From the NCBI GenBank assembly GCA_017992885.1, contig JAGONT010000016.1, positions 1 through 53,412 on the forward strand: a DNA stretch of 53,412 nucleotides, in the 5' to 3' direction. This DNA is from Alphaproteobacteria bacterium. GTDB lineage: Bacteria > Pseudomonadota > Alphaproteobacteria > UBA9655. Every line of letters starts with the position of its first letter. Position 1 is the stretch's first letter. The notes beneath the pieces were generated by a model. That model was not told the origin of the DNA, made no database searches, and worked only from the letters and a program-made list of their open reading frames with translations. Shown one piece after another: positions 4,621-41,330 of this stretch. The position numbers were made by a program, and so were the translations under genes.

Positions 4621-4637
4621 AATCATGACTTTCAAAA

Positions 4638-4714
4638 TGGTCGGAGCGGCGGGATTTGAACCCACGACCCCCACACCCCCAGCGTGGTGCGCTACCAGAC
4701 TGCGCTACGCTCCG
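4638..4714 (-). tRNA. tRNA-Pro (anticodon GGG)
   Basis: A 77-nt cloverleaf on the minus strand: acceptor CGGAGCG/CGCTCCG, D arm with GGTAGCGC, anticodon stem CCACG/TGTGG with loop CTGGGGG (anticodon GGG), T arm with GTTCAAATC, discriminator A and an encoded CCA (4640-4638). Confidence 0.95.
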
Positions 4715-16127: not shown

Positions 16128-16203
16128 GCCGGATTAGCTCAGCTGGTAGAGCAACTGATTTGTAATCAGTAGGCCGGGGGTTCGAATCCCTCATCCGGCA
16201 CCA
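16128..16203 (+). tRNA. tRNA-Thr (anticodon UGU)
   Basis: A 76-nt cloverleaf: acceptor GCCGGAT/ATCCGGC, D arm AGCTCAGCTGGTAGAGC, anticodon stem ACTGA/TCAGT with loop TTTGTAA (anticodon TGT), T arm GTTCGAATC, discriminator A and encoded CCA. Integrase lies 174 bp downstream, so its 3' end is the likely integration target. Confidence 0.97.
16178..16203 (+). other. Putative attachment site (attL/attB core) in the tRNA-Thr 3' end
   Basis: Tyrosine integrases with an N-terminal arm domain usually recombine at the 3' end of a tRNA gene, keeping the tRNA intact. The T-arm/acceptor segment here is the natural core. I found no second copy downstream within the window, so the matching right end is probably beyond 53.4 kb. 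Confidence 0.45.
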
Positions 16204-16377
16204 GGGTTTTCTCAATGTAAGACTTGGCTTCAGAAGATTTTTGTAGTGTGTTTGCGTTTATAAAACGTGGTAAAAAGTGATCGAAATTAACCCCTGTTGA
16301 TGATAGTTTAATGATAATATTCTTGATGATAATTTAAAAAAGTGGTATAAAGAGAGCGCCAACAATGGAGGTCTTCT

Positions 16378-20324: not shown

Positions 20325-20347
20325 ATTTTCTTATCTCCTATCTGCTT

Positions 20348-23686: not shown

Positions 23687-23687
23687 C

Positions 23688-26002: not shown

Positions 26003-26005
26003 CGG

Positions 26006-27859
26006 CTATGCCTCCGGTCTCTGTTTTTGCTGTTTTTTTGTACCGGGAGCGACTCCCTTTTTTATAATATCAAGCCGTTCGCCTATTTTTTCTCCCATTC
26101 CTTGGAGCTTTTGAGGTTTATAGTTTTTCATGAGATCTTCAAAGGCTTCTCTTAAATCAAGCTTGGAAAAGTCAATGCGTTGGATTTCTTCAATGGTAAA
26201 GCCACGGCAGAGGGGTTTTTTTGCTTTTCCCCAACCGAGATTGATTTGTTTTCTTCCTTGCTCTTGAAAGGCTTTGAGGAGTTTTGACCCGAAGCAACAA
26301 AAGGAAGATTTTTTCTTAACGCATTGGCCTAAGACCTTTTTAGCGCAATAGGTTCCCACATAATGACAAAGACGCCCTTTACGCTTTTCATGGAGAAGCT
26401 TCTCCTTTGACTTACATCCTCCAAGACCGAGACTCTTTCCCCAGCCTTTTCCTGACCCACAGCAATCCTTGAAGCTCAGGATATGTTTTGAGCATTGATG
26501 CTCATCTCCTTCAAAGATAGAATTTATTTTTCCTTGCATGTCTTTGAGCAGGGCTAACTGTGCGAGAGAGGACATCATTTCATTATTCGCTTCTAAACTT
26601 TGATCTCTACAACTTCCATCAAGGCAGAAGGGTGTGTTGCCTCCTGTAATTTGATAACTCGTTCGAGAGTTTCCTTTACATTGATATGTTTGGGTATAAG
26701 CGACACACGTGTTACCAACGTTTTGTTTGCAGGATGAGTTAATCTGCACACAGCCTCGTGCCCTTAAAGGACCGCAATTGTCTTTTGTAGGGAAATCGCA
26801 GGCATAGGTCAGCTTTTCTTGCCAACAGTCTCTTGTGATAGGAATCCCCTCAATGATACGTGTTTGAGGTCCTTGTGTGCATTCTTTAGTATCATAGTGG
26901 CAAAGCCCTTGATCAACGCGTGCTTCTAATTTTTCACAATTAGATGCCCATTCATCAGGGAGAATGGTATAAGTTTCTTCTTCATAGGTGATTTTGATCG
27001 TTGCATTCAAATTATAGACCTTTAGTCGTCCATGACGACTCAGGTGTGTTTTACCTTGAATTAAAGGTTGGCCTAAATTATTTCTTTCAATAAGAACTTT
27101 CTGAATTTGATCTTCCTGAAGATCAATAGGGACGATAGTTCTAGGGTTGTTGCATCGATAGCACCGTGTAAGTTTTTTACTGTTTACCTCTTGTAAACAG
27201 GCTTTAAAAGCTGCCGTGATATCAATAGGCCCAGCATTCTTTTTCCAGATTCTACGACTTCTCCATTGGCGAACGTGAGCGAGAAGAGCAGGGCAAGAGC
27301 GGACATGGTAAGGTTTATGAGATTTTTTACATCCGGTAAGGTGGAAATGTTCGTATTTTTCTCTCAAAACCTTTGTCTTGATGACTTTGACAACGAGCTG
27401 ACGTGTGCAACTTTCAAGAGAATCATCCCCGGGTTCTTCGCAAGTGAGAATCTCATCTTTATTTCCCTGCTGTGTTTCAACCACACGTGTGCCTTTTCCG
27501 CCAATCACTTCTAAAGGCATAGTCATGATTCTTTGAGACCCTGTGAGAAGAGGATCTTTTGAACGATCAATTTTAACTTGAGGGCGTGAGTCAGCGCTTT
27601 GATAAAGCATTTGGCTTGCAGGATCGGATTGACTAAGACTTTGAGCACGTCCCGTAAGATCTCTGCTTTTTAGTTTAGCTGCCTCTGAGTGTCCTGAATA
27701 AAAGGGGTGGTTTCCTGCTTCTTGCTTTTTGGCTTCCAATTGATTCAGAAATTCCTGAGCTGTTTTGTCGCCTGATTTAAGGTTAGCTGTTGGACTGGCA
27801 AGAATCACTTCAGGAAAAATAAAGGTCCAACAAAGGCAGAGAAACACCAATCTCTTCAT
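26006..27859 (-). CDS. traN: Mating pair stabilisation protein TraN
   Basis: Outer-membrane adhesin that contacts the recipient. 617 residues with a signal peptide (about 1-21, ending VILAS) and a large number of cysteines in the middle and C-terminal parts (for example CDFPTKDNCGPLRARGC and CSKHILSFKDCCGSGKGWG, both typical TraN blocks). It should depend on disulfide formation, matching the CxxC of TraF. Overlaps trbC by 4 bp. The C-terminal AKKPLCRGFTIEEIQRIDFS segment is the conserved TraN end. Confidence 0.92.
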   Translation of the reverse strand: MKRLVFLCLCWTFIFPEVILASPTANLKSGDKTAQEFLNQLEAKKQEAGNHPFYSGHSEAAKLKSRDLTGRAQSLSQSDPASQMLYQSADSRPQVKIDRSKDPLLTGSQRIMTMPLEVIGGKGTRVVETQQGNKDEILTCEEPGDDSLESCTRQLVVKVIKTKVLREKYEHFHLTGCKKSHKPYHVRSCPALLAHVRQWRSRRIWKKNAGPIDITAAFKACLQEVNSKKLTRCYRCNNPRTIVPIDLQEDQIQKVLIERNNLGQPLIQGKTHLSRHGRLKVYNLNATIKITYEEETYTILPDEWASNCEKLEARVDQGLCHYDTKECTQGPQTRIIEGIPITRDCWQEKLTYACDFPTKDNCGPLRARGCVQINSSCKQNVGNTCVAYTQTYQCKGNSRTSYQITGGNTPFCLDGSCRDQSLEANNEMMSSLAQLALLKDMQGKINSIFEGDEHQCSKHILSFKDCCGSGKGWGKSLGLGGCKSKEKLLHEKRKGRLCHYVGTYCAKKVLGQCVKKKSSFCCFGSKLLKAFQEQGRKQINLGWGKAKKPLCRGFTIEEIQRIDFSKLDLREAFEDLMKNYKPQKLQGMGEKIGERLDIIKKGVAPGTKKQQKQRPEA

Positions 27860-28563
27860 TTTGATCTCCCTTTTTCTAAGGATGCGTTTTCTAAGAGAGA
27901 GCTTGCGTCTTCTTTCAAACTCCCCTCTTTTGCAAAAACACTCAAAGCATAAGAAACACTCACATGCCCTTGGAGGCGATCATGAGGGGATGCTTGTGTG
28001 CGGTCTGGAGCCTTGAAGGGAAAAGGCTTGCTCAAGACATAGGTAGGCACTACCGTAACCGTAAAAAGAGAAAAAAGCTCAGGGTCAATCATAAAGCCTT
28101 GCCCTGTTTCTTGAATGATGTGTTGCAGAGCTTGAGCTGTCTTAAGATAGCTTCCGTCTTTGAAACCTCTCAATACAAGAGTTGCTCCATAAATTTTGGC
28201 CTTATGAGCAAGGTTAAGGAGTGCTTTCTCACCTAGTGAAAAGGAGACAAATATATAAAGACTTCCTGACTGAACTTTAACGTTTGAATTATGTTTAAAG
28301 TGAGAAGCCTGTAATGGATCCTGAACTTGAAGATCTGCTACACTCTCTTGAAACCCTCTATCTTCTAGAATAATTTCTCTTTGCTGAAAGGAATTTTTCA
28401 AGAAAGACTGGAATTCCTTGTTCTGTCTTATTTTCTCAATGGCTTTAAGAGAGTCTCGTACAAAATTCTCTTGCAATTGAACAGGGCATGTGTTTTCCTG
28501 AGGACAAGATGAGCACAATCCATTGAAAATAAATAGTAAAATAGCAAAAATTATAGCGCGCAA
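27856..28563 (-). CDS. trbC: Type-F pilin assembly protein TrbC
   Basis: Periplasmic protein of F-type systems. Family block LYIFVSFSLGEKALLNLAHKA, with LVLRGFKDGSYLKT and DPELFSLFTVTVVPTYVLS, is clearly present. No ATG is available at the front; the best start is TTG at 28563, with AGAGGAA just before it, giving a leader MRAIIFAILLFIFNGLCSS. A further TTG at 28581 is possible. Overlaps the end of traU by 13 nt. Confidence 0.88.
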   Translation of the reverse strand: MRAIIFAILLFIFNGLCSSCPQENTCPVQLQENFVRDSLKAIEKIRQNKEFQSFLKNSFQQREIILEDRGFQESVADLQVQDPLQASHFKHNSNVKVQSGSLYIFVSFSLGEKALLNLAHKAKIYGATLVLRGFKDGSYLKTAQALQHIIQETGQGFMIDPELFSLFTVTVVPTYVLSKPFPFKAPDRTQASPHDRLQGHVSVSYALSVFAKEGSLKEDASSLLENASLEKGRSK

Positions 28564-29765
28564 CAGTTCCTCTTCCTCCAAATTAGATATCCAAAATCTT
28601 CGCCTTTATAAGGAAATTCGCGGCCCGCTCCCCAAATGACTTCCGTACGTCCCAAGGGATTACAGGCCATAGGTCCACGTGTAGTCGGACGAGGGTAGAC
28701 CATTTGGGTTTTGTATTGAGTTTTCTTAATAATAGGCAGAGGAATCTTTTGACAAAGAGCCTCATAACCGCTTGTCCCCCAAAGCAAAAGCTCTCGATGA
28801 AGCTTGGCCATCATCCGTTGCACTATCAAAAGGCTGGCCTGAACGCCCCCATTGTGAGCTATATTGTTGCCTGTAAAAGGATAAAGGCTTCCCTGGCATC
28901 CTCCACACCAAAAAAGAGGATTGAGAGGAAATCCAGCTGTTGCTGCCGCACAATCAGCGGCACATGCAGCTTGGGCAATGGGATTGCCAAAAAGAATAGC
29001 TTCTGGGTTTAAAATGAAAGAAAGTTCATCTGCATTCCAAAGAGGATCAAATTCTGTCAAATAGGCGACATCAAAACTTTGCTGTTCAAGGCATAGGAAA
29101 TCGACCAGGAGTTCAAGCCAATAAATAACGGGATAGACGTACCAGTGAACTTGGTAAAAACTATTCTGCGTTCTACGTTCACCATTTGCACCATGGATAC
29201 CATAGTTTACAAAGCTATTTCCCATTTTAACGCCTCCCATGTTGACCATACAAAAAGGAACACGTGTAACGTCCACAAGCCTTACTGGCTCCCAAAATCC
29301 TACTGGTATTCCTGGTATTTGAGGAATGGGTGGCCTTGGGCAAAAACAAGGAATCTGGCCTGGATTAGGTGTATCTTCTCGTCCACCACCACTTACGCTT
29401 ACAGGGCCAATTGAGATAGGAAAAAGGCATGACCAACAGATATCTGTTACGGGGTTGACAAACCGGCCAGAGCACGCTTCAACATTTGACAAAGAACTAA
29501 ACATAATCAAAAGACAAAAATGTATGCGCAAGAAAATCTTAACTTTATTTCTTCTTTTTATCTGCCCTGCTTTTCTACATTCGGTAAAATCAAGTAAATT
29601 CCACTCTAACTGGGGGTCTTCAAAAACTAAGGGTTCTTTGTCAGGCCATTCGGAGTATTTATCCTCATTTGATCTTCTTTTAGGCATAAGCTTTTTAAGC
29701 TGGCTTTTATTTTTATGGTTTTCTTCTGAAGACAGTTGAGATTGTAAAGGAAAGGGGGAATTCAT
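28551..29765 (-). CDS. traU: Conjugal transfer protein TraU with N-terminal extension
   Basis: Cysteine-rich periplasmic protein needed for DNA transfer. Mature TraU is easy to see (CSGRFVNPVTDICWSCLFPI, then CFCPRPP, GFWEPVRLVDVTR, and CxxDCAAA...CGGCQGSLYPFTG). The signal-like segment (KIFLRIHFCLLIMFSSLSNVEA) lies at about residues 75-96, behind a hydrophilic charged extension of about 74 residues. The ATG at 29765 overlaps the previous stop (ATGA), so the long form is probably translated. No Met lies between residue 27 and the leader; a TTG there could be a second start. Whether the extension is functional or a gene fusion remnant is open. Confidence 0.9.
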   Translation of the reverse strand: MNSPFPLQSQLSSEENHKNKSQLKKLMPKRRSNEDKYSEWPDKEPLVFEDPQLEWNLLDFTECRKAGQIKRRNKVKIFLRIHFCLLIMFSSLSNVEACSGRFVNPVTDICWSCLFPISIGPVSVSGGGREDTPNPGQIPCFCPRPPIPQIPGIPVGFWEPVRLVDVTRVPFCMVNMGGVKMGNSFVNYGIHGANGERRTQNSFYQVHWYVYPVIYWLELLVDFLCLEQQSFDVAYLTEFDPLWNADELSFILNPEAILFGNPIAQAACAADCAAATAGFPLNPLFWCGGCQGSLYPFTGNNIAHNGGVQASLLIVQRMMAKLHRELLLWGTSGYEALCQKIPLPIIKKTQYKTQMVYPRPTTRGPMACNPLGRTEVIWGAGREFPYKGEDFGYLIWRKRNCCAL

Positions 29766-30241
29766 CGTGGGTTATCTTCCTCCTGAAGTTTTTCCTCTTG
29801 TGAGGCAAGTGAAAGTTCTTCCATGTGTAAGCGAAGTTGCTCTAAATATTCAGGGGGGATACCTCTTTCTTTGAGATCAAATTGTTCTGCATTCGCACCA
29901 CCTATAGGTGGAGTTTTTAAGTCAAAAACTTGTATTAAAGCTGGCCACTTAGAAGAAATCGCGACAGAATAAAGACAAAGCATGGCAACAAAGCCCATAG
30001 AAAGAGCATCGACAGCCACACGCTCTTTTGAGGGATGAACAAGAGTGTAAGTTGAGGGAAGAATAAGAAACCACCCAAGAATTCCAAAGAGGATGGGGAC
30101 CCAAAGAAAATCAAAACTTTCCCATACAATAAGCAGGATAATTGCTGAAAGTGTGGGTAAAGTTAGGCATAGACTTCCTATCAGAAGCCTGAGAGAATAA
30201 TAGTTCAAATACTTTGTTTTTCTACAACAATTTTCTTTCAT
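29762..30241 (-). CDS. Unknown multi-pass membrane protein between traW and traU
   Basis: 159 residues with about four hydrophobic segments (18-40, 44-62, 80-98 and a weaker one) and a charged C-terminal tail (about 110-159). Not one of the standard F-type genes, although the position, with 4-bp overlaps at both ends (traW stop and traU start), shows it is an integral member of the operon. I do not recognise the family. It may be an element-specific addition to the pore or a substitute for TrbI-like functions; neither is shown by the sequence. Confidence 0.75.
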   Translation of the reverse strand: MKENCCRKTKYLNYYSLRLLIGSLCLTLPTLSAIILLIVWESFDFLWVPILFGILGWFLILPSTYTLVHPSKERVAVDALSMGFVAMLCLYSVAISSKWPALIQVFDLKTPPIGGANAEQFDLKERGIPPEYLEQLRLHMEELSLASQEEKLQEEDNPR

Positions 30242-30897
30242 CTTATGAGGACCTTTTCTAATGCTGATGAGTTAGTTGTTTGTGTTTTTACGTCAATTTC
30301 TTCAATGCGCAGGAGAAGATCTTTCTGAGTCACCAAAGCAGGAACATGCTTGATGTTGAGCTTTTTAGTAAGAAGACCTGCCTGATCAAAATACACAGGA
30401 ACCTTTAGTTGTTCGGAGAGAGCTAAAGGCGTTCCTTTAATAAGAATGAGTTTGAGAGGACTTTTCTTTAGCTTCTCTCTTGCAAAAGTAACTTGATTCG
30501 CATCATCTCCATCAAAAAACAGGAGTCCTTGGGAAAGGTTCACAGTTTCAAGAGGATTAATTTTTGTATCCTTATTGTAAAAAACCCGTCCCGTATGATC
30601 TTTGATATCATCTGCGACAATATAGGTTGGATCGTAATAAAACACACAACTTTCACGAGCTTTGGCAATACCTTCCACAGGTTTTGGGCGTTCAATGGTT
30701 GCTTTTGCTTTCTGTTGAAGTTCTTGATGATGGCGTTCCAGTGCTCCCCTTTCTTCCATACTTTTTAACTTGCTTTGGATGAGAATAAGGGGGTCTTGTT
30801 CATCAATTGGATAAACCGTGCCATTTATTCCAAAGTCTTTCCCATGCAAAGCGCTAAGCTGAGCAAGATAGAGAAAGAAAAAAACAGTTTTTTTCAT
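30238..30897 (-). CDS. traW: Conjugal transfer protein TraW
   Basis: Periplasmic F-type protein that works with TrbC and TraU in pilus assembly. 219 residues from the ATG at 30897, which overlaps the preceding stop (TGATG); an ATG two codons upstream is equally possible. Signal peptide about 1-20, then DFGINGTVYPIDEQDPL, the hallmark TraW N-terminus, and LLFFDGDDANQV with KLILIKGTP plus HVPALV of its C-terminal fold. Confidence 0.92.
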   Translation of the reverse strand: MKKTVFFFLYLAQLSALHGKDFGINGTVYPIDEQDPLILIQSKLKSMEERGALERHHQELQQKAKATIERPKPVEGIAKARESCVFYYDPTYIVADDIKDHTGRVFYNKDTKINPLETVNLSQGLLFFDGDDANQVTFAREKLKKSPLKLILIKGTPLALSEQLKVPVYFDQAGLLTKKLNIKHVPALVTQKDLLLRIEEIDVKTQTTNSSALEKVLIR

Positions 30898-31430
30898 CAC
30901 CATTTTAAAAGCGCCTTGCCATAGATGTTATCAATTGAAACAAGCCCGAACTCTTTGTAGCGCGAGTCAAAACTGCGAATATGGTCCCCTACAACAAAAA
31001 GATAACCCTCAGGAACAGTTGGAATAGAAAGAGGGGAGAGAACTTGCCCCTCTTGTGTTTTGTCAAGGAGTGGATAGATTGTCGTAAAAGACCCGTTTTT
31101 AGCTTTTATTGAGAGGTCTTTTTTTGTTTTTGTGATCTGATCGCCAGGAAAGCCTATAACACGCTTAGTAAAAAGATAGCTCCCTTCTAAGTATTGAGGT
31201 TTATGACCTTGGATGGCAACAATATCACCTCGATTGATTGAACTACTTTTACGAACGAGAAGGTAGTGGGTACCTTCTAGGCTCTCTGAGGTAACTTCTA
31301 AAAGCTGTGTATAGGTTGTAAACCACCATCCTATAGCCATAAAAATCCCCACAACTAAAATTAATTTTATAAGCTTTTTAAGCTCTTTTTTCTGAAGTAT
31401 AGGATCTATTTTCTGATCAATCTTATTCAT
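30897..31430 (-). CDS. S26-family conjugative signal peptidase (TraF-type)
   Basis: Processes pilin or other transfer proteins at the inner membrane. 177 residues; one membrane helix (about 20-40), a Ser region in VTSESLEGTHYLLV (the nucleophile, in place of the usual SMxPT), RGDIVAIQG, the lysine motif KRVIGFPGDQI, and C-terminal GYLFVVGDHIRSFDSRYKEFG. The frame opens 7 codons earlier, but the ATG at 31430 overlaps the traC stop (ATGA) and is preferred. The missing Pro after the Ser is a small departure from consensus. Confidence 0.88.
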   Translation of the reverse strand: MNKIDQKIDPILQKKELKKLIKLILVVGIFMAIGWWFTTYTQLLEVTSESLEGTHYLLVRKSSSINRGDIVAIQGHKPQYLEGSYLFTKRVIGFPGDQITKTKKDLSIKAKNGSFTTIYPLLDKTQEGQVLSPLSIPTVPEGYLFVVGDHIRSFDSRYKEFGLVSIDNIYGKALLKW

Positions 31431-33877
31431 ACGGGTTCCCTTTGGGAGCATTGTTGGATAGCTTCTTTGAGGCTAAATCCCTGATGCACCAGTTTTTGTA
31501 CGGCTGCAAATTCCTCTGCTTTTGTGGAATAAAGAACTTTTGAGAAGCTATCGAGAAAGAGCCTACCTACCGCAAAACCTTTAGGGCCTTTGATCATAAT
31601 TTCAGCGTATTTGCCTTGCTCTGTGTGGAGGGAACGGAGCGTACGTTCCATGGCTGGGTCCATGATAAGGTGTTTAGAATTTTTGAGCATTTCAATGGAT
31701 TCATCTTTTTGAGAGAGAAGGCACATCCAATCAGAATTATCAAAAGCTGCTTGTGCTCCAGGGGTTGCATAAAAGTCGTTAATGGATTGGGTTCCTACAA
31801 TGAGGCCCCCAAAGTATTTTCGAAGACGCCTTGCCGCTGTTTCAATAAACACCCCTGATTGTTTACCACGGAGCATGTCCCAAGCTTCATCGAGAATGAG
31901 GCAGGATGGGGTGGTTCGGTCTCCCATGTAGATGGAGTTGGTAATTTGAAGAATAACCATTTGGACAATGACGGATTGGAGATCCTTCCGTTCCTTCAGT
32001 TCCTCCATCTCAACGACAACCAAAGTATCCGAGAAGTCAATGTTGGAAGGCCCGTTAAAAAATCGACCATAGGTTCCACGTTCTGTGTAAGGATGCAATC
32101 GTTCCCCTAGAGTGACAGCAACTGAATCAGGATGCTTTAAAAGGAAACTGGCAACATTCGTAATGGTTGCATTATTTTGTTTTCTATCCCAGGCATTTTG
32201 GAGCGCTTGTTCCAGATAAGTGTCCTCTAAGTCCGTTGTTCCTTCTTTAGGAGCTGCCATCAGAGAAAGAACAGGCTTAAGCATAGCTAACCCATCAGAG
32301 GCGGCTTCAGAATCATTGGAAGGAAGAGAAGAAAAAGGATTGATGCAAATAGGTGAGTGTGTTGAAAATTCTACAAATGTTCCCTTAAGAAGTTTAACCG
32401 TCTTTTCAAAGGATCTTCCCACATCGAGAACAAAGACCCGACCTCCCATGCCGAGCATGCTCGTCATGAGCTCTTGCATGAAGACTGATTTACCAGAACC
32501 GGATCGTCCCACCACACAGGTATTGTAATTGCCCTCATTGTTATCAAAAGGACACCAATAAAAAATCTGTCCTCGCCTTCCCACGAGCATCATGCCAGGA
32601 GACTTTGTTCCTTGCCACTCTCCTTGGAGAGGGATGAGGTTCGCGGGTTCATGGCTGAGGGTCGTTTTTGTTTTTTGAAAAAGCCTACTATCTTCAGCGG
32701 CACCTTCTCCCCAGGTCATGGGAAGACAGCTTAAGAAGGAAGGCAATTGTAGATACTTATCCAATACCAATTCCCAACGTTGAGAGCGATAAAGGTTAAA
32801 GAGAGTTTGTTCTTCCCGGGCGATTTGGTGGGGAGGAGAAAGTAGACCTACTTGGAAGCGCGTGCGTGCAAGCCTTTGCCCTTCTTCAAACTTCTCTCGC
32901 ACATAGGTCCATTCTTCTGCTTCTTTTTTAAGAGAAGGAACGTACTTTGCAATGGGGCTAGCCGCTTGTTTCTCCACGTTGCCACATTTAGCCAGCATTT
33001 TGGTTTTAAGGGTTTTTTCGTTACAAATATGCACGCCATAGGATAGAAAAAAGCCTCCTTGGAGACGTAAGAACTCCTCAAAAGGATCGCCAATGAGATA
33101 ACTCATAGCTCCTAAATGCCACAAAGGAGGGAAAAGCCGAGGTGTATAAAGGCGCAAGATCCGCTCTTCTTCTCCAAAGATCAACTGAGAGGGCTCTATT
33201 TTAATGCGTGTTGCAGGACACATACATTGACGGGAAAGACTTTCGTGAGGATTCCAGCTTAATACATGTGTTGTAAGAAGACGTTCTGTTGGGTTAAGAA
33301 GATCATCCAAGCCTAAAATCAAATCTTCTGCCTGCCATACCTTAACAGGAAGCCCCCATCCTTTCAGGGTCGTGAGCAACTGTTCTCGCAAAGCCAACAT
33401 ATTCTCAAAGGATTTAAAAATCGCAGGAGACTCGCTATAGGAGATTAAAAGCCGGAAGGATCTTATGGCAGAATGCTTTCTAAAAGCAGAGCAACGTTCT
33501 TTAGCAAGTTCTTGCAAAACTTCAGAGCGTTCATTTGATGTACACTTTGTGATAAAAAGATTTTGTCGGGCCTCCTCCCATGTCTTCAGCCAGGGACCGA
33601 TATGAGGACTTGCAATCAACAAACATTGTAAGTTTGATCCCAGAGGTAATGCATGCTGGAATATCCCCGTCAGTTGCCGAGGAATTTCTTCTCCACATCC
33701 AACCAAGGGTAAGGTTTCAAGAACAAATCCTACACTGGCTCTATTGAGAAACAGCTGTGTTTCTGGGTCAAAACTACGATAGGGTAACATCTCACTTAAG
33801 CTATGAGGGAACAAAAATTCGTTTGCTAACTTGAGTGTTGTGGACGTGGATCCAAAGGGCCTTTTCTCTTGATTCAT
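31427..33877 (-). CDS. traC: F-type type IV secretion ATPase TraC (VirB4-like)
   Basis: Cytoplasmic ATPase that powers pilus assembly. About 816 residues from the ATG at 33877. The TraC N-terminal domain, then Walker A GRSGSGKS (about 454-462) and Walker B LILDEAWDML (about 659), followed by FGGLIVGTQSINDFY and the WMCLLSQKDESIEML segment. The start is uncertain: a GTG at 33901 that overlaps the traV stop (TAGTG) and an ATG at 33877 are both plausible and neither has a good ribosome-binding site. Confidence 0.93.
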   Translation of the reverse strand: MNQEKRPFGSTSTTLKLANEFLFPHSLSEMLPYRSFDPETQLFLNRASVGFVLETLPLVGCGEEIPRQLTGIFQHALPLGSNLQCLLIASPHIGPWLKTWEEARQNLFITKCTSNERSEVLQELAKERCSAFRKHSAIRSFRLLISYSESPAIFKSFENMLALREQLLTTLKGWGLPVKVWQAEDLILGLDDLLNPTERLLTTHVLSWNPHESLSRQCMCPATRIKIEPSQLIFGEEERILRLYTPRLFPPLWHLGAMSYLIGDPFEEFLRLQGGFFLSYGVHICNEKTLKTKMLAKCGNVEKQAASPIAKYVPSLKKEAEEWTYVREKFEEGQRLARTRFQVGLLSPPHQIAREEQTLFNLYRSQRWELVLDKYLQLPSFLSCLPMTWGEGAAEDSRLFQKTKTTLSHEPANLIPLQGEWQGTKSPGMMLVGRRGQIFYWCPFDNNEGNYNTCVVGRSGSGKSVFMQELMTSMLGMGGRVFVLDVGRSFEKTVKLLKGTFVEFSTHSPICINPFSSLPSNDSEAASDGLAMLKPVLSLMAAPKEGTTDLEDTYLEQALQNAWDRKQNNATITNVASFLLKHPDSVAVTLGERLHPYTERGTYGRFFNGPSNIDFSDTLVVVEMEELKERKDLQSVIVQMVILQITNSIYMGDRTTPSCLILDEAWDMLRGKQSGVFIETAARRLRKYFGGLIVGTQSINDFYATPGAQAAFDNSDWMCLLSQKDESIEMLKNSKHLIMDPAMERTLRSLHTEQGKYAEIMIKGPKGFAVGRLFLDSFSKVLYSTKAEEFAAVQKLVHQGFSLKEAIQQCSQREPV

Positions 33878-33900
33878 TTTTTGGGAGAGAGGATTTTGCA

Positions 33901-34236
33901 CTATATTGTTCCCAACGCCCAAGGCGAATACCAAATATGGAGCTCTTCTATATCTTTCTGAAACTGGGGATTTGAGCTACACTGTTCACAGGGTTTGGAG
34001 TCAGAACCGTTTTCCTTCTTAGGAAGCTCGCCTTCGTTTACCATTTGGTTAACTTCAGAGATGGACTTACATCCTACCCCTTCACCAGGAGGGCATTCAA
34101 ATCCTCCATCATAAACGCCCATACAGCCGCTTAGCGCAAGCGCTAACGCAGCAGTCATCAGTAATCGGTGATCAGTTATCAGATGGGTAACTGAAGCGGC
34201 TGACTCCTTATGTTCTATTTTTTGAATGTGAAGCAT
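33901..34236 (-). CDS. traV: Outer-membrane lipoprotein TraV
   Basis: 111 residues. A signal peptide ending in the lipobox LSGC (Cys38) after an N-terminal extension of about 25 residues, then the CPPGEGVGCKSISEVNQMV segment conserved in TraV. With TraK and TraB it forms the envelope-spanning core. AAGGA precedes the ATG. The mature part is short, and a CEQC motif lies near the C-terminus. Confidence 0.88.
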   Translation of the reverse strand: MLHIQKIEHKESAASVTHLITDHRLLMTAALALALSGCMGVYDGGFECPPGEGVGCKSISEVNQMVNEGELPKKENGSDSKPCEQCSSNPQFQKDIEELHIWYSPWALGTI

Positions 34237-34251
34237 TGTTTTGTCCTTTCT

Positions 34252-35568
34252 TTAATGCTGGTTATTGGGCTCTGTAGATTGAATGCTGGGATCTCTTTGG
34301 ACTTCGATCTTTTCTTTCACATCTTGGCTGCCAATGAAGGTCCCTTCGGTGAAGACAATATCAACCACTTGTCCTGCAGCTACTTGAATGACAGGCTGCA
34401 GTTGTTCAGCGCGATCAATGTAATATTGGGACAGGCGATCGAGGGCGGATGAGGCTCCAGAAGCCATACCCGAAGTAAAGAGGTCGCCTACGTTAGGTGG
34501 AGACGGTGGGTTTCCCCCTAGCATAAAAGGATTCCCTTGAGCTTGACGATTTTGGGGGTTTGCCACGTTACTTAATCCTGCAAAGACACCTCCTACAAGA
34601 CTACGCCCTAAGAACTGGCCGTCTTTGGAGGCCACAATGCCTCTAATTCCTGCTTTGCCATCAGGACCTGAAATATAGCCAGCTACTTGGGTTTCTATGA
34701 TCTCCCCTGTCTTTCTCTCAACGCAAGTAAGCTTTTCTAAGCGAGCATAAACACGCTCTGAGGAAAGATCACCATAGGCACTGGCTGTGCAATGGCAATC
34801 TTTCAAATCACTTTGGAAACGTCTCGGAAGCGTTCCAAAATCAATCAGCCTTAAAAGCATGGGCCGTGGATCACTTGAGGCTGTCATTGCAGAAGAGGCA
34901 TCAAGCCCTGAAAGCAGGACTGTTTTTGCAAAAGCGCCTGCAGGAATAGTTGTTTCAACAGTTTTAGGAAGTCTGTTTTTTGGATTTTCTGTAAGGCTTA
35001 GAGAGACTTTCTGAATGAGGTTTTTTTGTTGTTCCTCTTGACTTCCTTGGGGTAGAAAAGGCTGTGGAGAGGATTGCCCTATTCTTTGCATTTCCAGCTG
35101 TTGCTCTAAATTTAGGATTTTTGCTTCCAGATCTTGAACAAGCGTACTTTGAGAGGAAGGAGAGCTAAACGGTTGATTGTCTCCTTCATTATTAAGGCCT
35201 TCTGAGGGGAAATCCCCTCTCTTGGCTCCCTCTTGAAAAAGAGTTTTGAGAGCTAGGAGGTCATCAGAAAGTGTTTTGAGCTTACCCTCAATACCATTGC
35301 GAAAAGCCTCATCGAGGTTAATTTTTTTTGTGGCTGTTTCAATAGAGGTTGTTGTAGATTTAGCGGCTTCCTCTTGTTGAGGAAGGGGCGAGTTCCCAAA
35401 TAAAAACGTACTTATTCCATAGGCAAGAACAATGATCACTAAAGCTGCACATCCAACCCAAAAGAGTTGAAGTCTTTGGACGGTGTGAGAAGATTCTGGA
35501 CGAAAGAACTTTAAGCCTTTCTTCGCAGAAGCCAAGAACCAGGTTTTAATTTGCGCGTAATACAACAT
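34252..35568 (-). CDS. traB: Conjugal transfer protein TraB (VirB10-like)
   Basis: Spans inner and outer membranes of the core complex. 438 residues; membrane helix about 32-53, a predicted coiled coil about 85-170 (LKTLSDDLLALKTLF, LVQDLEAKILNLEQQLEMQ), then the periplasmic VirB10-type domain with IPAGAFAKTVLLSGLDASS and the CHCTASAYGDLSSERVYARL block typical of TraB. Start overlaps the traK end by 23 nt. Confidence 0.93.
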   Translation of the reverse strand: MLYYAQIKTWFLASAKKGLKFFRPESSHTVQRLQLFWVGCAALVIIVLAYGISTFLFGNSPLPQQEEAAKSTTTSIETATKKINLDEAFRNGIEGKLKTLSDDLLALKTLFQEGAKRGDFPSEGLNNEGDNQPFSSPSSQSTLVQDLEAKILNLEQQLEMQRIGQSSPQPFLPQGSQEEQQKNLIQKVSLSLTENPKNRLPKTVETTIPAGAFAKTVLLSGLDASSAMTASSDPRPMLLRLIDFGTLPRRFQSDLKDCHCTASAYGDLSSERVYARLEKLTCVERKTGEIIETQVAGYISGPDGKAGIRGIVASKDGQFLGRSLVGGVFAGLSNVANPQNRQAQGNPFMLGGNPPSPPNVGDLFTSGMASGASSALDRLSQYYIDRAEQLQPVIQVAAGQVVDIVFTEGTFIGSQDVKEKIEVQRDPSIQSTEPNNQH

Positions 35569-36268
35569 GAATGTCTGTTCCTTCTTTTGGATTTAAGGTT
35601 TTTTGGGTGATCAAAATCGCAACAATCCTATGGCTCTTAGAAGGCAATGTCTTTGCCACTTCGAACTCAGATAAAACCTGTGTCTTTTGGGTTTTGTTTT
35701 GAATGTGATAGGTAAGACCTCTCAGCTTTTCTCCTTGAATTTCCCTCACTCTTTGGTAAGGCTCATTAAGAGTGATTAGGCTGATGGGCATTTCTTTGTA
35801 ACCCAAAGAAATGCGTCCTTCTTGCAAGGCCTGCATGAGACCTTCGATTTCCTCACGGAAGAGAGGTGCAGAGGCACGCTTTTCCTTCTCAATCTCTTGT
35901 CTGATGGCGCTATCGCTTTTAAGAATAATGGCTTCTGGTGCTTGATGTTTTGGGATTAAGCGTAAATCTTGGGTATGTCCCCCCTCAGTCGTGAGTGTGA
36001 GACTAATTGGCTTTATGTTTGCTTCCTCTTCAGAAAGTTTTGGACGAATAAAAACCTGTCCTTGATTTTCATCTGTTTCTAAAACATATTCGTTAGCATT
36101 GCCAAAGACATGAAGGATGCGGTCTTCTTGGACCTTAATGCGAGTGAGACCTTCTTGTGAGATGGGTACTTGAATGACCCGCAGCTCATCAAGATTTTTT
36201 ATAATTGCTGCATGAGCTGCCGTTGATGATATTGATATAAGGAAACTAAAAAAGGGTTTAAGAATCAT
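35546..36268 (-). CDS. traK: Conjugal transfer protein TraK (secretin-like)
   Basis: Outer-membrane core component that interacts with TraV and TraB. 240 residues, signal peptide about 1-20 (ending AHAA), then beta-rich sequence with VFGNANEYVLETDENQGQVF and LTLTTEGGHTQDLRLIPK, typical of TraK. Start overlaps the traE end by 11 nt. Confidence 0.92.
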   Translation of the reverse strand: MILKPFFSFLISISSTAAHAAIIKNLDELRVIQVPISQEGLTRIKVQEDRILHVFGNANEYVLETDENQGQVFIRPKLSEEEANIKPISLTLTTEGGHTQDLRLIPKHQAPEAIILKSDSAIRQEIEKEKRASAPLFREEIEGLMQALQEGRISLGYKEMPISLITLNEPYQRVREIQGEKLRGLTYHIQNKTQKTQVLSEFEVAKTLPSKSHRIVAILITQKTLNPKEGTDIHVVLRAN

Positions 36269-36818
36269 ACTGAATTCCTCCTGTAACGCGTTCTAAAAGA
36301 AGCCCTGCTCCTCGGAGACTAAATTGCAAAGAGATTGACTCTAAAGAAGAGTGAATCTCTTTACCTGCAACGTAACTCGTGAGGTTTCCTTTCACCTCAA
36401 CAGAGAGCTTGCTCGGATTAGCTTTAACTTCGGTGGGTTTAAAGTGGGTTGAGAGCTGGAGTTTTGTGTAATAGTCTCCATCTTCAAGAAGTTGTTTTTT
36501 TAAAACACCGTAAGCTTCAGGTGTTGCGTATCTTAAAAGTGTTTCGTGGTTATAAGCAAAACTGGTAGGTGACAAATCCAAAAGAAGCTTCGCCATATAA
36601 AGGCCCATTTCTTCTAAGTATTCTTTTGAAACTGCTCCTCCCTCTACCCACAAGGTCTTTGTGATGTGGGGAGGGACTAAAATCGTCCGCTCATTCTTTA
36701 AAAAGAGTGCACTACTGAGGACGATATTGCTCGTGGCCATAAGGGCCGAGATACCAATCCACGCATTTCTCTGAGAAATAATCTTAAGAATGTTATGGCG
36801 GAGGAAATCTGCTTTCAT
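36258..36818 (-). CDS. traE: Conjugal transfer protein TraE
   Basis: Inner-membrane protein with the VirB8/TraE role. 186 residues; one N-terminal membrane helix (about 20-40), then a periplasmic domain with LVPPHITKTLWVEGG and SKEYLEEMGLYMAKLLLDLSP, both family-typical. The ATG shares one base with the traL stop (TAATG). Confidence 0.92.
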   Translation of the reverse strand: MKADFLRHNILKIISQRNAWIGISALMATSNIVLSSALFLKNERTILVPPHITKTLWVEGGAVSKEYLEEMGLYMAKLLLDLSPTSFAYNHETLLRYATPEAYGVLKKQLLEDGDYYTKLQLSTHFKPTEVKANPSKLSVEVKGNLTSYVAGKEIHSSLESISLQFSLRGAGLLLERVTGGIQYDS

Positions 36819-37108
36819 TAGCCAATGGTCTCCCGGACATAAGAAGGAACAGGCAACTTCATGGCCTTTTTAGGCGTAGGCAGATGCCAATAAAGAGCAT
36901 GAATGAGGGCGGAACTTTCGTTTTGCTTCTTGAGGGTACGCACAAGGGAAAGAACCCCAATCCCTACAAGAAAGCCAGAGATAATCCAACCCATGAACAA
37001 GCCCCCAAAGAGAGGAACGGCAACAACTAAGACCTCGTCTTTGTTAATGCCCAGAAACCGTAAGGGCTTGTCTAAGCGGTTGAGGAGAAAGTTCTCATTT
37101 CTGTCCAT
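36818..37108 (-). CDS. traL: Conjugal transfer protein TraL
   Basis: 96-residue inner-membrane protein (VirB3-like). LLNRLDKPLRFLGINKDEV followed by two adjacent hydrophobic segments and LYWHLP, the standard TraL arrangement. Follows the pilin gene directly. Confidence 0.92.
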   Translation of the reverse strand: MDRNENFLLNRLDKPLRFLGINKDEVLVVAVPLFGGLFMGWIISGFLVGIGVLSLVRTLKKQNESSALIHALYWHLPTPKKAMKLPVPSYVRETIG

Positions 37109-37120
37109 GATGCCTCTCCC

Positions 37121-37465
37121 TCACACGCAAATGGCATAAGTGGTGTTGATCCAAACCTTCGCAAAGCCAAAGCTAATGGTGGTTAGCACGGCAACAATGA
37201 AAGGCGTTGGGCTGGATTTCATAAAGGCAAGACCTGCGGCTGCAAGACAACCGGCAATAAGGGTAATTGGTACAAGGCTGTTGTTAATAATGCCGACCAG
37301 GTTTGTTGTGCTTTGGTTAAGCCCTGCATCATTTGTATTGGCCACACCAAAGGCTTCAGGTGTAAAAGCTAAGAAGGCAAGAGCAAATAGGCAAAATACC
37401 TTAACTTGTTCTGTGTATGCGGCCTTATCTTTAAAAAATAGTTTTGTATTATTCATACTATCCAT
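37121..37465 (-). CDS. traA: F-type pilin TraA
   Basis: Probable main pilus subunit. Choosing the ATG at 37465, which has AAGGAG 8 nt upstream, gives 114 residues; the frame is open to 37606 but the upstream starts lie inside ssb. A long leader with a hydrophobic stretch (about 22-42, ending EAFG) precedes a mature part with two hydrophobic segments separated by a short KSSPTP loop (NSLVPITLIAGCLAAAGLAF, then FIVAVLTTISFGFAKVWI). Order before traL supports the assignment. Pilins diverge quickly, so this rests on size, topology and position. Confidence 0.85.
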   Translation of the reverse strand: MDSMNNTKLFFKDKAAYTEQVKVFCLFALAFLAFTPEAFGVANTNDAGLNQSTTNLVGIINNSLVPITLIAGCLAAAGLAFMKSSPTPFIVAVLTTISFGFAKVWINTTYAICV

Positions 37466-37511
37466 CGATGTTTCTCCTTCTGTTGATGAATTTTGTTGGA
37501 AATAAATGTCC

Positions 37512-38057
37512 TTAGTGGTCATGAGCTGTTTCTCCTGTATCTTGAGGGAATTGATCTGAGAGAGCGTCGTTGTCAGGGGTCCCCACAGGCTCACCCGCAT
37601 CTTCATTCATATCTTTTACGCAAGTAGAGGCCTCATTCGAGAGGGGTGCATCTTGCTTTGTTTTGATCTTTACCGGATTATTTTTAGAATTTGAGAGTGA
37701 GGATCTCAGGTGTTCAACTTTTCCGCCCTGTCCGGAAACGACAACATGGGCTGTTATTCGAGGTCGATTATATTTATCGGTCCAACGCTGGTAGACAAGC
37801 TTCCCTTCCACATAGACCGTGTCTCCCCTTTTTACGAAGTCTTTAATCCACCTTACCGTGGAACCACGAAACACTGTAATCTGATGCCAGTCGGTTGCAG
37901 ATTGCCATTCTGATTCCCCGCCTTCGCGAGGACGGGGATAAGCTTTCCACATCACAGTTGTTGCTAAAGAGAAGTTTGCAATTTCCCTCCCTTCTTGGGT
38001 TAAAAAGATGTGAGGGGAACGGCCAACGTTTCCCATTAAAATGACTTTGTTAAGCAT
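37512..38057 (-). CDS. ssb: Single-stranded DNA-binding protein
   Basis: 181-residue SSB: an OB fold with MLNKVILMGNVGRSPHI, NFSLATT, DWHQITVFRG, VKRGDTVYVEGKL and RWTDKYNRPR. AAGGAG precedes the ATG at 38057. The C-terminal tail is acidic but ends GETAHDH, without the DDIPF tip through which most SSBs recruit partner proteins. An element-borne SSB could protect transferred strands or help element replication. Overlaps the end of the replication-like gene by 8 bp. Confidence 0.92.
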   Translation of the reverse strand: MLNKVILMGNVGRSPHIFLTQEGREIANFSLATTVMWKAYPRPREGGESEWQSATDWHQITVFRGSTVRWIKDFVKRGDTVYVEGKLVYQRWTDKYNRPRITAHVVVSGQGGKVEHLRSSLSNSKNNPVKIKTKQDAPLSNEASTCVKDMNEDAGEPVGTPDNDALSDQFPQDTGETAHDH

Positions 38058-39891
38058 AATGATTTTCTCCTTGGTTATGAGTAGGCATTGCCGAAATTTG
38101 AGAAGGATCTGGTATCTCGGCTTGATGAGAAAAATCCTTTTCATTCATCAAACGCGTTCTGACGGTACGGGCAGAAGGAAACGTGTCCTGAACAATAGGC
38201 AGAATTTTTAAGCGTAAATCTTCAATTTTAGAGAGAGCTCGCGCATCTGAACTTCCAACCCAAACAAGGCGATCGTTTTCAACTTCCAAAAATTTCGCAT
38301 TGGCAATGGTCTTTAGATCCAACAAACTCACATAATCACGCGACTGAGGAGAAAAGTTCAGGTGAGAACACCATCCTCTCCACATGGGGTCTGCAATAGA
38401 CTCAAGGACAGTGCGGGCTTCTTTTGCGCTGGCGTCTTCAAAGGCTTTTTCGATTTTTTGATCAAGAAGCTTTTCATCGTCGAAATTGCCTTCCAGCACT
38501 TTCAGGAGGTTTTCCTCAACAAGGATCCAGTCGAGACTCACCCGCCACCTTCGGGCCCCTTGCCCCATCAGGAAAGGGGAACGAGAAACACGTTCACAGA
38601 ACAGCTTCCACTGGTTCAGATCGTTCTCAAAGTATAGAGGGAAAAGGGCATGGATCTTCCGCCGCCGCTCATCGGTCAGCTGAACAGGAGGCAACCCTGT
38701 GGCAAGTTCCGAGAGGACGGCTCCCTCTTGGCCCACATAAGCGTTCCAAATGCGAAGAACTTTTGCAGAAAAGTCGAGTCCAGCAAAACTCGCTTCAGAA
38801 ACATTGCTGCCAGAAAAACCCTTTTCAGAAAATTTTTTGTCCTCGCGCGCGCGCTTTCTCTGTGTGTGCTCTTTGTTTATATTCTCTGTTATAATCTCTG
38901 TATTAGAGCGATCATTTTTTTCTTCTCGAGAGTAAAAATTTGTTTCTCTCGAAGGTAAAATTTTGTTCTCATCGGAAGGTAAATTTTGATCGCTTGAAGA
39001 AACATTTTTTTCTATTCGAGAGGAAAATTTCGTTTCTTGTAAAGATAAACCTTTGTTCTCATTTTGATCATTCGAGGAATCATTTTTTCCCTCTCGAGGA
39101 TAAAATTTTGTTTCTTTCGAAAGTAAAGTTTTGTTCTCATCGAATGATAAATTTTGATCGCTCGAAGAAACATTTTTTTCTCCTCTTTCTTTTTGAAGAA
39201 GAGGGAAAATAGTATCATGGGGAAAACCAGGCAAGCTAAAGCCAAGGGCTTGGAGATCGATATATAGCTTTCTGAGGTTCACACGATATTGAGGGGTGCG
39301 GTTCCATTTATACCGTGGATTGACGCGCGTTTGAATCCATCCCTGTTCCGTCAGAAAGCTCAAATATCGGCGCATGGTAACGGGCGTCACACGAACCATT
39401 GTTTCTTCAAGTAATTCACTGGTTGATTTATAAAACCAACCATATTGAGGGGAAGCTCCATCAGGAGAGGAAGATACCTCTTCTCTCCAAAAAAGAGCAA
39501 AATCTGAAACCCTTTGACTCCAATACACCAACTGGTTCAGTACAGCTGCAATGAGGGGGTCATTTGTAAGTTCTACAAATTCCATACGAATCAAAGAAAC
39601 TCTTGATTCTCTAGGCTTGCCACAAGGAACCCTTGTGAAGGGAGAGGTCAACTCTTCTCTCCCTTCAGGGCTCCCCACGTCCCCAGGGAGGCATTTGGGA
39701 ACAAGAGGAGTGTCCATATGATAGTCATCCAACGTCTTTGAATTGGTTTCTGAGCTTGTTTCAGTGAGAATAATGTCTGTATGAATTATGCCTTCTGGAT
39801 TGTTGCTGAAAGGCTGATTTTGTATCAGCTCCTGAGAGTCAATGTCCCTTGTTTTCATTTGTGCATTATGGGATAGAAGGTGTGACATCAT
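38050..39891 (-). CDS. Winged-helix replication-initiator-like protein with internal repeats
   Basis: 613 residues from the ATG at 39891 (GGAGG upstream, stop-start overlap ATGA). Residues about 100-220 resemble the N-terminal winged-helix domain of phage and ICE replication proteins: a stretch with RMEFVELTNDPLIAAVLNQL and YWSQRV, then SELLEETM, VTMRRYLSFLTEQGWI and TPQYRVNLRKL. Residues about 235-330 are a repeat region. The C-terminal part (about 370-600) is helical, with WVGSSDARALSKIEDL. The layout, DNA-binding domain, iteron-bearing linker and second domain, is like lambda O protein. Role in replication is inferred, not proven; a regulatory role is the main alternative. Confidence 0.6.
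   Translation of the reverse strand: MMSHLLSHNAQMKTRDIDSQELIQNQPFSNNPEGIIHTDIILTETSSETNSKTLDDYHMDTPLVPKCLPGDVGSPEGREELTSPFTRVPCGKPRESRVSLIRMEFVELTNDPLIAAVLNQLVYWSQRVSDFALFWREEVSSSPDGASPQYGWFYKSTSELLEETMVRVTPVTMRRYLSFLTEQGWIQTRVNPRYKWNRTPQYRVNLRKLYIDLQALGFSLPGFPHDTIFPLLQKERGEKNVSSSDQNLSFDENKTLLSKETKFYPREGKNDSSNDQNENKGLSLQETKFSSRIEKNVSSSDQNLPSDENKILPSRETNFYSREEKNDRSNTEIITENINKEHTQRKRAREDKKFSEKGFSGSNVSEASFAGLDFSAKVLRIWNAYVGQEGAVLSELATGLPPVQLTDERRRKIHALFPLYFENDLNQWKLFCERVSRSPFLMGQGARRWRVSLDWILVEENLLKVLEGNFDDEKLLDQKIEKAFEDASAKEARTVLESIADPMWRGWCSHLNFSPQSRDYVSLLDLKTIANAKFLEVENDRLVWVGSSDARALSKIEDLRLKILPIVQDTFPSARTVRTRLMNEKDFSHQAEIPDPSQISAMPTHNQGENHYA
38923..39179. repeat. Iteron-like tandem repeats within the replication-like gene
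   Basis: Three units of about 90, 78 and 90 bp, each built of four imperfect 21-23-bp sub-repeats (about 11 in full, plus a partial copy from about 38907). Written on the plus strand the main consensus is about CTCTCGARGGTAAAATTTTG. Examples: CTCGAGGATAAAATTTTGTT, CTTTCGAAAGTAAAGTTTTG, CTCATCGAATGATAAATTTT. In the second unit one sub-repeat has lost about 12 bp. Array is strongly AT-rich, and the TCGA-containing half-sites sit about two helical turns apart. Units are multiples of three, so they also code for repeated KNVSSSDQN...DENK...ETKFY blocks. Confidence 0.85.
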
Positions 39892-40661
39892 AATGTCCTC
39901 CATTCATTTGAAGAAGACTCAATCCTAGAACTTAGGAGGTAGTATGGATATGGATTTCCCCTCTGGGGGAATTGGTTGGGGTTCAAACGATCTCTTTTAA
40001 AAGTACTCGCTTTAAAAGGATTCACCTTAAAGGTGTTCGCTTTAGAATTGCTTGCTTTTAAAGTACTTTCTTTCAAAGCAGCTTCTTTGAAGGAGAGGAT
40101 GCCATGGAGATAGGTATGAAAGCCGTTATCGGATTGTTGGACCTCTAAAAGAGATGGCCAGCTTTGATAAGTAAGTGGACGCAGGTTATTATTAACGTGC
40201 GTATCAGAAGTGCGAAGTGTAAAGCTGAGATACTCGAGATTTTCCTTTTCTCCAAAATAACAAAAAGCTTTGTAAAGCTTGTGATAAAAGCAGCGATAAA
40301 GTTCAGCTGTTTCACGAAGAGAGGTTGACCTATCATATCCAAGACAAAGACATATTCTGGCTGTCCAATACTCTTTCACTTTTGGCTGAACACCTTTAAG
40401 GTGAACACTGGAAAACATTTTTACCAAGTTATTTTCGTCTGTCTCCTCTGAGCTTAACTCGAAGAAAGAAGAGATGGGGTGGGGGTAGAGAACAGCTCCG
40501 CCATAAACACCCCGCTTATCATCTTCAGCGATGACAAACGTGGCTCTGTCCTGAGCTTCTGGGTCAATATAAAAGTTCTGGTAAATCTTTAAAAGACCAA
40601 GAAGAGAGTTTATCCTTTCGCTGTGCAATTCATGAGTTTGTGGTTCAATAATTTTAAGCAT
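39888..40661 (-). CDS. Unknown protein with lysine-spaced pentapeptide tail, first gene of the tra operon
   Basis: 257 residues, family not recognised. The N-terminal 200 residues look globular, with two FYIDPEAQDRATFVIAED and YPHPISSFFELSSEE-like segments that vaguely recall an acyltransferase-like beta core. Residues about 190-224 are seven pentapeptides of form xFKxx (SFKEA, ALKES, TLKAS, NSKAN, TFKVN, PFKAS, TFKRD), placing a lysine every fifth residue. This basic ladder is likely to bind nucleic acid or acidic surfaces, but that is inference. Its stop overlaps the next gene (ATGA). It begins the long minus-strand operon. Confidence 0.65.
   Translation of the reverse strand: MLKIIEPQTHELHSERINSLLGLLKIYQNFYIDPEAQDRATFVIAEDDKRGVYGGAVLYPHPISSFFELSSEETDENNLVKMFSSVHLKGVQPKVKEYWTARICLCLGYDRSTSLRETAELYRCFYHKLYKAFCYFGEKENLEYLSFTLRTSDTHVNNNLRPLTYQSWPSLLEVQQSDNGFHTYLHGILSFKEAALKESTLKASNSKANTFKVNPFKASTFKRDRLNPNQFPQRGNPYPYYLLSSRIESSSNEWRTL
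39991..40095. repeat. Seven tandem 15-bp repeats in the 39888 gene
   Basis: Fifteen-bp units such as CTCGCTTTAAAAGGA, TTCACCTTAAAGGTG, CTTGCTTTTAAAGTA and CTTTCTTTCAAAGCA, exactly in register for seven copies. They encode the xFKxx pentapeptides described for the gene. Several units contain AAAGNNCTT-like short palindromes. Confidence 0.85.
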
Positions 40662-40908: not shown

Positions 40909-41145
40909 TTACACTTCCATCTTGCCCTCCACTCCATTAACCAGAACGTTGTCAGCGGTATGGCGTCGCAGGCACTCTTTTTCAAATTGAAGGATATCTC
41001 CAAAACGATAGAGAACAGGGCCATTGAGTTTCATATAAGGGGGAGTCTTCCCATTATATCGCCAGAAACGTAACGTCTCTGGCGTTACATGCCAACGTTC
41101 TGCAAGTTCTTCTGGTGTTAATAAATCTGATGCATCTAATGCCAT
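40909..41145 (-). CDS. AlpA/MerR-like helix-turn-helix DNA-binding protein
   Basis: 78 residues with one HTH_17-type domain (LLTPEELAERWHVTPETLRFWRYNGKTPPYMKLNG, then LYRFGDILQFE), the fold of AlpA-type regulators and excisionases. AAGGA lies 7 nt before the ATG. A hairpin-forming sequence (GCTTTTGAG, AAAA, CTCAAAGC) lies in the 5' leader at about 41165-41185. Between the integrase-driven element and its tra operon, it could be the recombination directionality factor or the operon regulator. Family proteins do both. Confidence 0.75.
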   Translation of the reverse strand: MALDASDLLTPEELAERWHVTPETLRFWRYNGKTPPYMKLNGPVLYRFGDILQFEKECLRRHTADNVLVNGVEGKMEV

Positions 41146-41203: not shown

Positions 41204-41232
41204 AAGATAGTGCTAACAAGAGAGGCTGTCAA
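41204..41232 (-). promoter_or_regulatory. Promoter of the AlpA-like gene
   Basis: Minus strand TTGACA (41232-41227), 17-bp spacer, TATCTT (41209-41204); an overlapping TATAAT (41204-41199) is another possible -10. The leader to the ATG is about 50 nt and includes the hairpin. An 80-bp phased repeat array begins 18 bp upstream of the -35. Confidence 0.7.
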
Positions 41233-41250
41233 CACCTTTTTCAGAAAAAA

Positions 41251-41330
41251 TGCATAACTTTCAATAACTTATACAACTTTATCCAACGTTTTACAACGCT
41301 ATATAACGTTATACAACGTTATATATACGC
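41251..41330. repeat. Eight 10-bp helically phased repeats upstream of the AlpA-like promoter
   Basis: Consecutive decamers with no gap: TGCATAACTT, TCAATAACTT, ATACAACTTT, ATCCAACGTT, TTACAACGCT, ATATAACGTT, ATACAACGTT, ATATATACGC. Consensus ATACAACGTT. A 10-bp period puts every copy on the same face of the helix, just upstream of the -35 box. Looks like an array for cooperative binding of a regulator or for bending. Confidence 0.85.

What the first reader, a model, noticed from the sequence alone, without database searches (positions are those of the whole stretch)
41251..41330. Eight exactly 10-bp-phased repeats next to a promoter
Consensus ATACAACGTT repeats without a gap for 80 bp, all on one helix face, and ends 18 bp upstream of a TTGACA/N17 promoter for an AlpA-like protein. 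This is an unusual architecture for cooperative loading, DNA bending or a multi-site switch for excision and transfer.
Basis: partly seen in the sequence, partly recalled or inferred. Interest (0 to 1): 0.8.

Follow-up and report, generated by a model that had tools for sequence, protein, structure and literature searches.

The report
AlpA excision-factor operator with phased repeats
A mobile DNA element carries a row of DNA sites spaced exactly one helix turn apart in front of the small regulator gene alpA; across many related elements the site letters change together with the AlpA protein while the 10-bp spacing stays, so the row is very probably AlpA's own landing strip for switching on excision and transfer, a known type of switch in an unusually clean form.

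Summary
The repeat is real: period-10 self-match 47/70 (background about 17.6), the strongest 10-bp signal in the 53-kb window. It is not eight equal copies. Five clean 10-bp units (41271-41324) abut a separate promoter-proximal element (41251-41272) lying 1 bp out of register. That element is shared by ten elements whose array units differ, at a near-fixed distance from an UP-element-like TTGACA promoter. The window holds an integrative conjugative element (tRNA-Thr, tyrosine integrase, F-type transfer genes), and alpA heads its transfer operon. Ten-bp arrays recur upstream of related alpA genes (18 of 161 versus 2 of 545 control upstreams), with lineage-specific units. Unit sequence tracks AlpA identity (Mantel r=0.62, P=2e-4), not that of four neighbouring operon genes (r about 0). 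A matching block lies between the tRNA end (attL) and the integrase here; in two relatives the cognate units are likewise the best off-array match in that interval, in three they are not. AlpA's nearest solved relatives are RdfS and BldC, wHTH proteins that assemble head-to-tail on DNA. Best reading: an autoregulatory operator of an RDF-type AlpA protein. Binding and sign of regulation are untested.

The parts
41271..41324 (-). core operator array: five 10-bp units, gene strand ATAACGTTGT ATAACGTTAT ATAGCGTTGT AAAACGTTGG ATAAAGTTGT; further degenerate matches distally to about 41330
   Evidence: relatives
41251..41272 (-). promoter-proximal element ATAAGTTATTGAAAGTTATGCA ([CT]ATAA[CG]TnnTTGAA in relatives), 1 bp out of register with the array; TTGAA begins 32 bp before TTGACA
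   Evidence: conserved in 10 elements with different array units
41237..41250 (-). UP-element-like TTTTTTCTGAAAAA
   Evidence: same layout in relatives
41227..41232 (-). -35 TTGACA
41204..41209 (-). -10 TATCTT, 17-bp spacer
40909..41145 (-). alpA: 78-aa HTH_17 winged-helix protein, RdfS/BldC-like
39888..40661 (-). g257, second gene of the operon, unknown function
   Evidence: (no Pfam), conserved order
38050..39903 (-). g617, third gene; replication-type wHTH suspected from sequence appearance only
18306..38144 (-). ssb and F-type conjugation genes down to TraD
16246..16281 (+). second AlpA-type site set at attL: 28/36 identical, ungapped, to the distal end of the array
16297..16331 (+). TTGATGATA repeats, candidate integrase arm sites
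16128..16203 (+). tRNA-Thr, presumed attachment gene; its 3' end is the presumed attL core
16378..17538 (+). tyrosine integrase

Best explanation
The array is the operator of the AlpA-like protein encoded just downstream. AlpA, a small MerR/BldC/RdfS-type winged-helix protein, loads head-to-tail, one protomer per 10-bp unit, so that all protomers lie on one DNA face and bind cooperatively (inferred). This filament next to the UP-element-like promoter autoregulates alpA and, through it, the transfer operon it heads (inferred; I lean slightly to positive autoregulation for this upstream layout, but repression is possible). The same protein probably also binds the related sites between attL and int and acts as the excisionase (RDF), coupling excision to transfer (inferred). 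Shown by sequence: the array, its recurrence, the co-variation of unit with AlpA, the attL copy, the protein family. Not shown: binding, oligomerisation, regulation, excision.
For: Ten-bp arrays upstream of alpA homologues: lag-10 score of 29 or more in 18 of 161 usable alpA-like upstreams versus 2 of 545 control ORF upstreams, with period 10 and its harmonic 20 the only clearly enriched periods at that threshold (one search printed 19 of 163, and I set aside two locus-edge artefacts). Unit differs by lineage: AACGTTGTAT, TAAAACGTGn, TTCTCATTnn, ACCTTAAnnn, ATAGATnTnn. Unit similarity follows AlpA identity (r=0.62, P=2e-4, 13 elements) but not g257 (-0.04), g617 (0.05), TraL-like p96 (-0.10) or TraE (-0.08) (partial Mantel). 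The upstream neighbour of the array varies (XRE gene, LuxR-type gene, integrase, tRNA), alpA does not. attL-int block: 36-bp ungapped match at 28/36, score 44 versus shuffle maximum 32, best of all off-array 174-bp intervals in the window; in G002:C2 and G249:C29 the top off-array match to the cognate units also lies in the att-int interval. Profile search of PDB: RdfS 8dgl is the top hit, E 5.8e-5; AlphaFold model nearest to BldC-DNA 6ama and RdfS. Published RDFs bind direct repeats one helical turn apart, cooperatively: Apl has seven operators at 10-11 bp at pR-pL and five at attP (PMC7498355); RdfS binds attP and its own promoter (PMC11963761).
Against: No binding data. Array and alpA are adjacent, so part of the co-variation may be linkage (they could be exchanged as one cassette). 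Without the three closest elements the Mantel test is weaker (r=0.49, P=0.04, 10 elements). Not every alpA has a long array (14 of 24 g257-linked upstreams in the host genus score 27 or more). No cognate set at att-int was found in G012:C44, G001:C2 or G249:C77. attR is not in the contig. RdfS itself shows no consensus motif, unlike this array. Foldseek E-values are weak (0.01-0.04) because the protein is small.
Confidence: 0.83

Rival explanations
1. The repeats are iterons of a replication origin, bound by the operon's replication-like protein g617 (or g257).
For: Direct repeats beside an AT-rich stretch; the third gene and similar genes downstream of alpA in other families look like replication wHTH proteins.
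Against: Unit does not co-vary with g617 or g257; arrays also occur where g257/g617 were not found next to alpA (G001:C2; G249:C77); 10 bp is short for iterons (background knowledge); the copy at attL-int is unexplained.
Confidence: 0.06
2. Another regulator (a divergent XRE/CI-like or LuxR-type protein, or a host factor such as IHF) is the ligand, and alpA is only the target gene.
For: XRE genes lie upstream of several arrays and a LuxR-type gene upstream in G012 and G002; the fixed proximal element could be a host-factor site.
Against: The upstream gene changes between elements while the array stays; no such gene was found next to the array in the window; head-to-tail 10-bp repeats suit a monomeric wHTH protein better than a dimeric XRE repressor (inference).
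Confidence: 0.07
3. The array is an intrinsically curved or flexible DNA segment acting by shape only.
For: Helical phasing, AT-rich, next to a promoter.
Against: Units have no A-tracts and change letters completely between relatives while tracking AlpA.
Confidence: 0.03
4. The repeats belong to the origin of transfer.
For: The element is conjugative and encodes a MobA/MobL relaxase.
Against: In G002:C2 the relaxase-like matches lie about 53 kb from the array; arrays follow alpA.
Confidence: 0.01

Closest known systems
Apl of phage 186 and its pR-pL and attP operators
   Same: 6-bp sites as direct repeats at 10-11 bp, seven at the promoters and five at att, cooperative, bends DNA, RDF and regulator in one (PMC7498355)
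   Different: Apl is an outlier RDF by sequence and its sites lie between two face-to-face promoters; here the array lies upstream of an UP-element-like stretch at the head of a conjugation operon
RdfS of ICEMlSymR7A
   Same: HTH_17-type wHTH protein of an ICE, binds attP next to an Int arm site and its own promoter (PMC11963761); best PDB sequence match to AlpA here
BldC of Streptomyces
   Same: Head-to-tail oligomer on tandem repeats (PMC5859096), closest fold match
   Different: 9-bp repeats, chromosomal developmental regulator
AlpA of Gram-negative PICIs
   Same: AlpA as master regulator with positive autoregulation, needed for excision (PMC11773190)
   Different: Phage satellite, not an ICE; no 10-bp array was mentioned in the passages read

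Membership tests
RDF (excisionase) operator system | direct repeats spaced about one helical turn | tested here: met
RDF (excisionase) operator system | small wHTH protein of the HTH_17/BldC/RdfS kind encoded next to the sites | tested here: met
   Pfam HTH_17 3.3e-7; RdfS 5.8e-5; fold
RDF (excisionase) operator system | sites also at the attachment region of a tyrosine integrase | tested here: inconclusive
   met in window, G002:C2 and G249:C29; not found in G012:C44, G001:C2, G249:C77
RDF (excisionase) operator system | protein binds the sites cooperatively and stimulates excision | not testable with these tools
   needs footprinting and excision assays
Replication iterons | repeat unit recognised by the adjacent initiator (co-variation) | tested here: not met
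   unit vs g617 r=0.05, vs g257 r=-0.04
Origin of transfer | linked to the relaxase gene | tested here: not met
   relaxase far from the array in G002:C2

The most novel reading that the evidence does not exclude
These arrays are a natural collection of matched protein-operator pairs: the 10-bp phase and the promoter frame stay while all units of an array are rewritten together with the AlpA recognition helix. The rewriting would insulate co-resident elements from one another's excision factor: genome G000 holds at least three such elements with different units (C64, C12, C3). A fixed promoter-proximal element would anchor the variable filament to RNA polymerase.
Probability: 0.3. Interest if true: 0.7.

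Novelty: new member of a known kind. Interest (0 to 1): 0.5.

Why it matters
RDF proteins are thought to read DNA loosely, and for RdfS no motif could be found. Here about 20 alpA genes carry clean arrays whose letters change with the protein, which makes DNA recognition and specificity switching of the AlpA/RdfS/BldC kind directly testable. It also offers a single control point linking excision and conjugation in F-type ICEs of these alphaproteobacterial relatives (Paracaedibacter and Caedibacter among named alpA matches).

Tried and rejected
Plasmid tblastn with g257: no match. Single-sequence AlphaFold of AlpA: poor (pLDDT 47), replaced by an alignment-based model (75). The first broad alignment could not be used for the genome-contig scan; a narrower one gave 22 loci. 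A post hoc test of a TCTNAT core for QWRW helices is only marginal (P=0.046) and misses TCTAT units; kept as a lead, not as evidence. Paper search for RDF autoregulation with helical-turn repeats gave none. Iteron, oriT and curvature-only readings rejected as above.

Full report
Observation. The stretch 41251-41330 has a strong 10-bp period: 47 of 70 positions match at lag 10 against about 17.6 expected, and no other lag-10 place in the window comes near (34). TRF reports it as periods 10 and 20. The unit is not copied exactly eight times. On the gene (minus) strand the clean units are ATAACGTTGT ATAACGTTAT ATAGCGTTGT AAAACGTTGG ATAAAGTTGT (41271-41324). The two promoter-nearest 'copies' are shifted by 1 bp and the eighth has lost the core. 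The promoter is as described: TTGACA, 17 bp, TATCTT, 18 bp from the array.

Setting. The window is one whole contig (C64) of a 2.4-Mb draft genome. Chromosomal genes are followed by tRNA-Thr (16128-16203), a tyrosine integrase (16378-17538) and an F-type conjugation set from TraD to ssb, then g617, g257 and alpA, all on the minus strand, then transposase-like genes and a large MobA/MobL relaxase-primase. This is an integrative conjugative element, and alpA is the first gene of the transfer operon. The order alpA, g257, g617, ssb, TraL, TraE, TraC is kept, with some gaps, in elements of about ten related genomes.

Recurrence. Upstream regions of alpA-like genes in relatives also carry 10-bp arrays with other letters: TAAAACGTGn in the two closest, TTCTCATTnn in a large group, ACCTTAAnnn, ATAGATnTnn, GATCTATTTn. 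In 83 upstreams the best period is 10 in 25 and 20 in 11, where about 4 each are expected if periods were equally likely. In the larger set 18 of 161 alpA-like upstreams reach a lag-10 score of 29 or more against 2 of 545 upstreams of other ORFs in the same loci (the script printed 19 of 163, and I set aside L206 and L137, whose negative coordinates are locus-edge artefacts).

Which protein? For 13 elements with the operon, similarity of the array unit follows AlpA identity (r=0.62, P=2e-4) and not g257, g617, p96 or TraE (all between -0.10 and 0.05) (earlier version and partial test, where one element, G006:C82, was represented by the wrong one of its two tandem alpA genes; one search corrects this). 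Without the three closest elements AlpA still correlates (r=0.49, P=0.04). Linkage of array and alpA as one cassette cannot be excluded, but a role of g617 as the repeat-binding initiator is not supported. The gene upstream of the array is different in different elements: XRE-type (G014:C17, G013:C10), LuxR-type (G012, G002), integrase (G249:C29), tRNA (G001:C2) (XRE and LuxR types judged by eye from the sequences).

A second site set. Between the tRNA end and int lies GTGTGTTTGCGTTTATAAAACGTGGTAAAAAGTGAT (16246-16281), 28/36 identical without gaps to the distal end of the array (score 44; 200 shuffles, maximum 32). Of 914 tiled 174-bp intervals outside the array, only three overlapping ones containing this block reach its score. 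In G002:C2 (integrase 91% identical, but at tRNA-Lys) and G249:C29 the best off-array match to their own units is also in the att-int interval (in G249:C29 a tRNA-like 3' end precedes it, read by eye). In G012:C44, G001:C2 and G249:C77 it is not. TTGATGATA repeats next to the block look like integrase arm sites, the arrangement reported for RdfS at attP.

The protein. AlpA has an HTH_17 domain. A profile of 15 relatives finds RdfS (8dgl) as the best PDB sequence. An alignment-based AlphaFold model (mean pLDDT 75, core about 88) is nearest to BldC on DNA (6ama) and RdfS (TM 0.64-0.73), with weak E-values owing to size. These proteins bind tandem repeats head-to-tail.

Promoter frame. Ten elements share [CT]ATAA[CG]TnnTTGAA about 32 bp before the -35, a T-run/A-run that resembles an UP element, then TTGACA with weak -10 boxes, although their array units differ. 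In a second class (L012, L024, L051, L074, L085) the array lies downstream of the best-scoring promoter, which would suit repression. The sign of regulation may therefore differ between elements.

Limits. Array absence: in the host genus 14 of 24 alpA upstreams with g257 downstream score 27 or more, against 4 of 23 without (P=0.006); the 50-bp scoring window misses short sets such as AACGTA in L043 (seen by eye). No experiment was possible. attR is outside the contig.

Verdict. A real, regularly phased operator, most likely for AlpA acting as regulator and probably as excision factor. It belongs to the known kind of RDF direct-repeat operators; the clean units and their co-variation with the protein are what make it worth following.

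Noticed in passing
45843-51368: A single 1841-aa ORF joins a MobA/MobL relaxase domain, a RecD-like helicase part and a DUF7146/Toprim primase part.
   Followed up: no
39996-40078 and 38914-39156: Tandem repeats inside g257 (15 bp) and g617 (23 bp), the two genes after alpA.
   Followed up: no
2045-2374 and 4303-4674: Two CutA1-family genes flank rpsI/rplM-like genes in the chromosomal part.
   Followed up: no
L043 upstream of alpA: A short set of AACGTA repeats at 9-10-bp spacing overlaps the -10 region of an alpA promoter without a long array.
   Followed up: partly
L018, L039, L041: Two alpA-like genes in tandem before g257; the array, with a 20-bp higher-order repeat, belongs to one of them.
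   Followed up: partly
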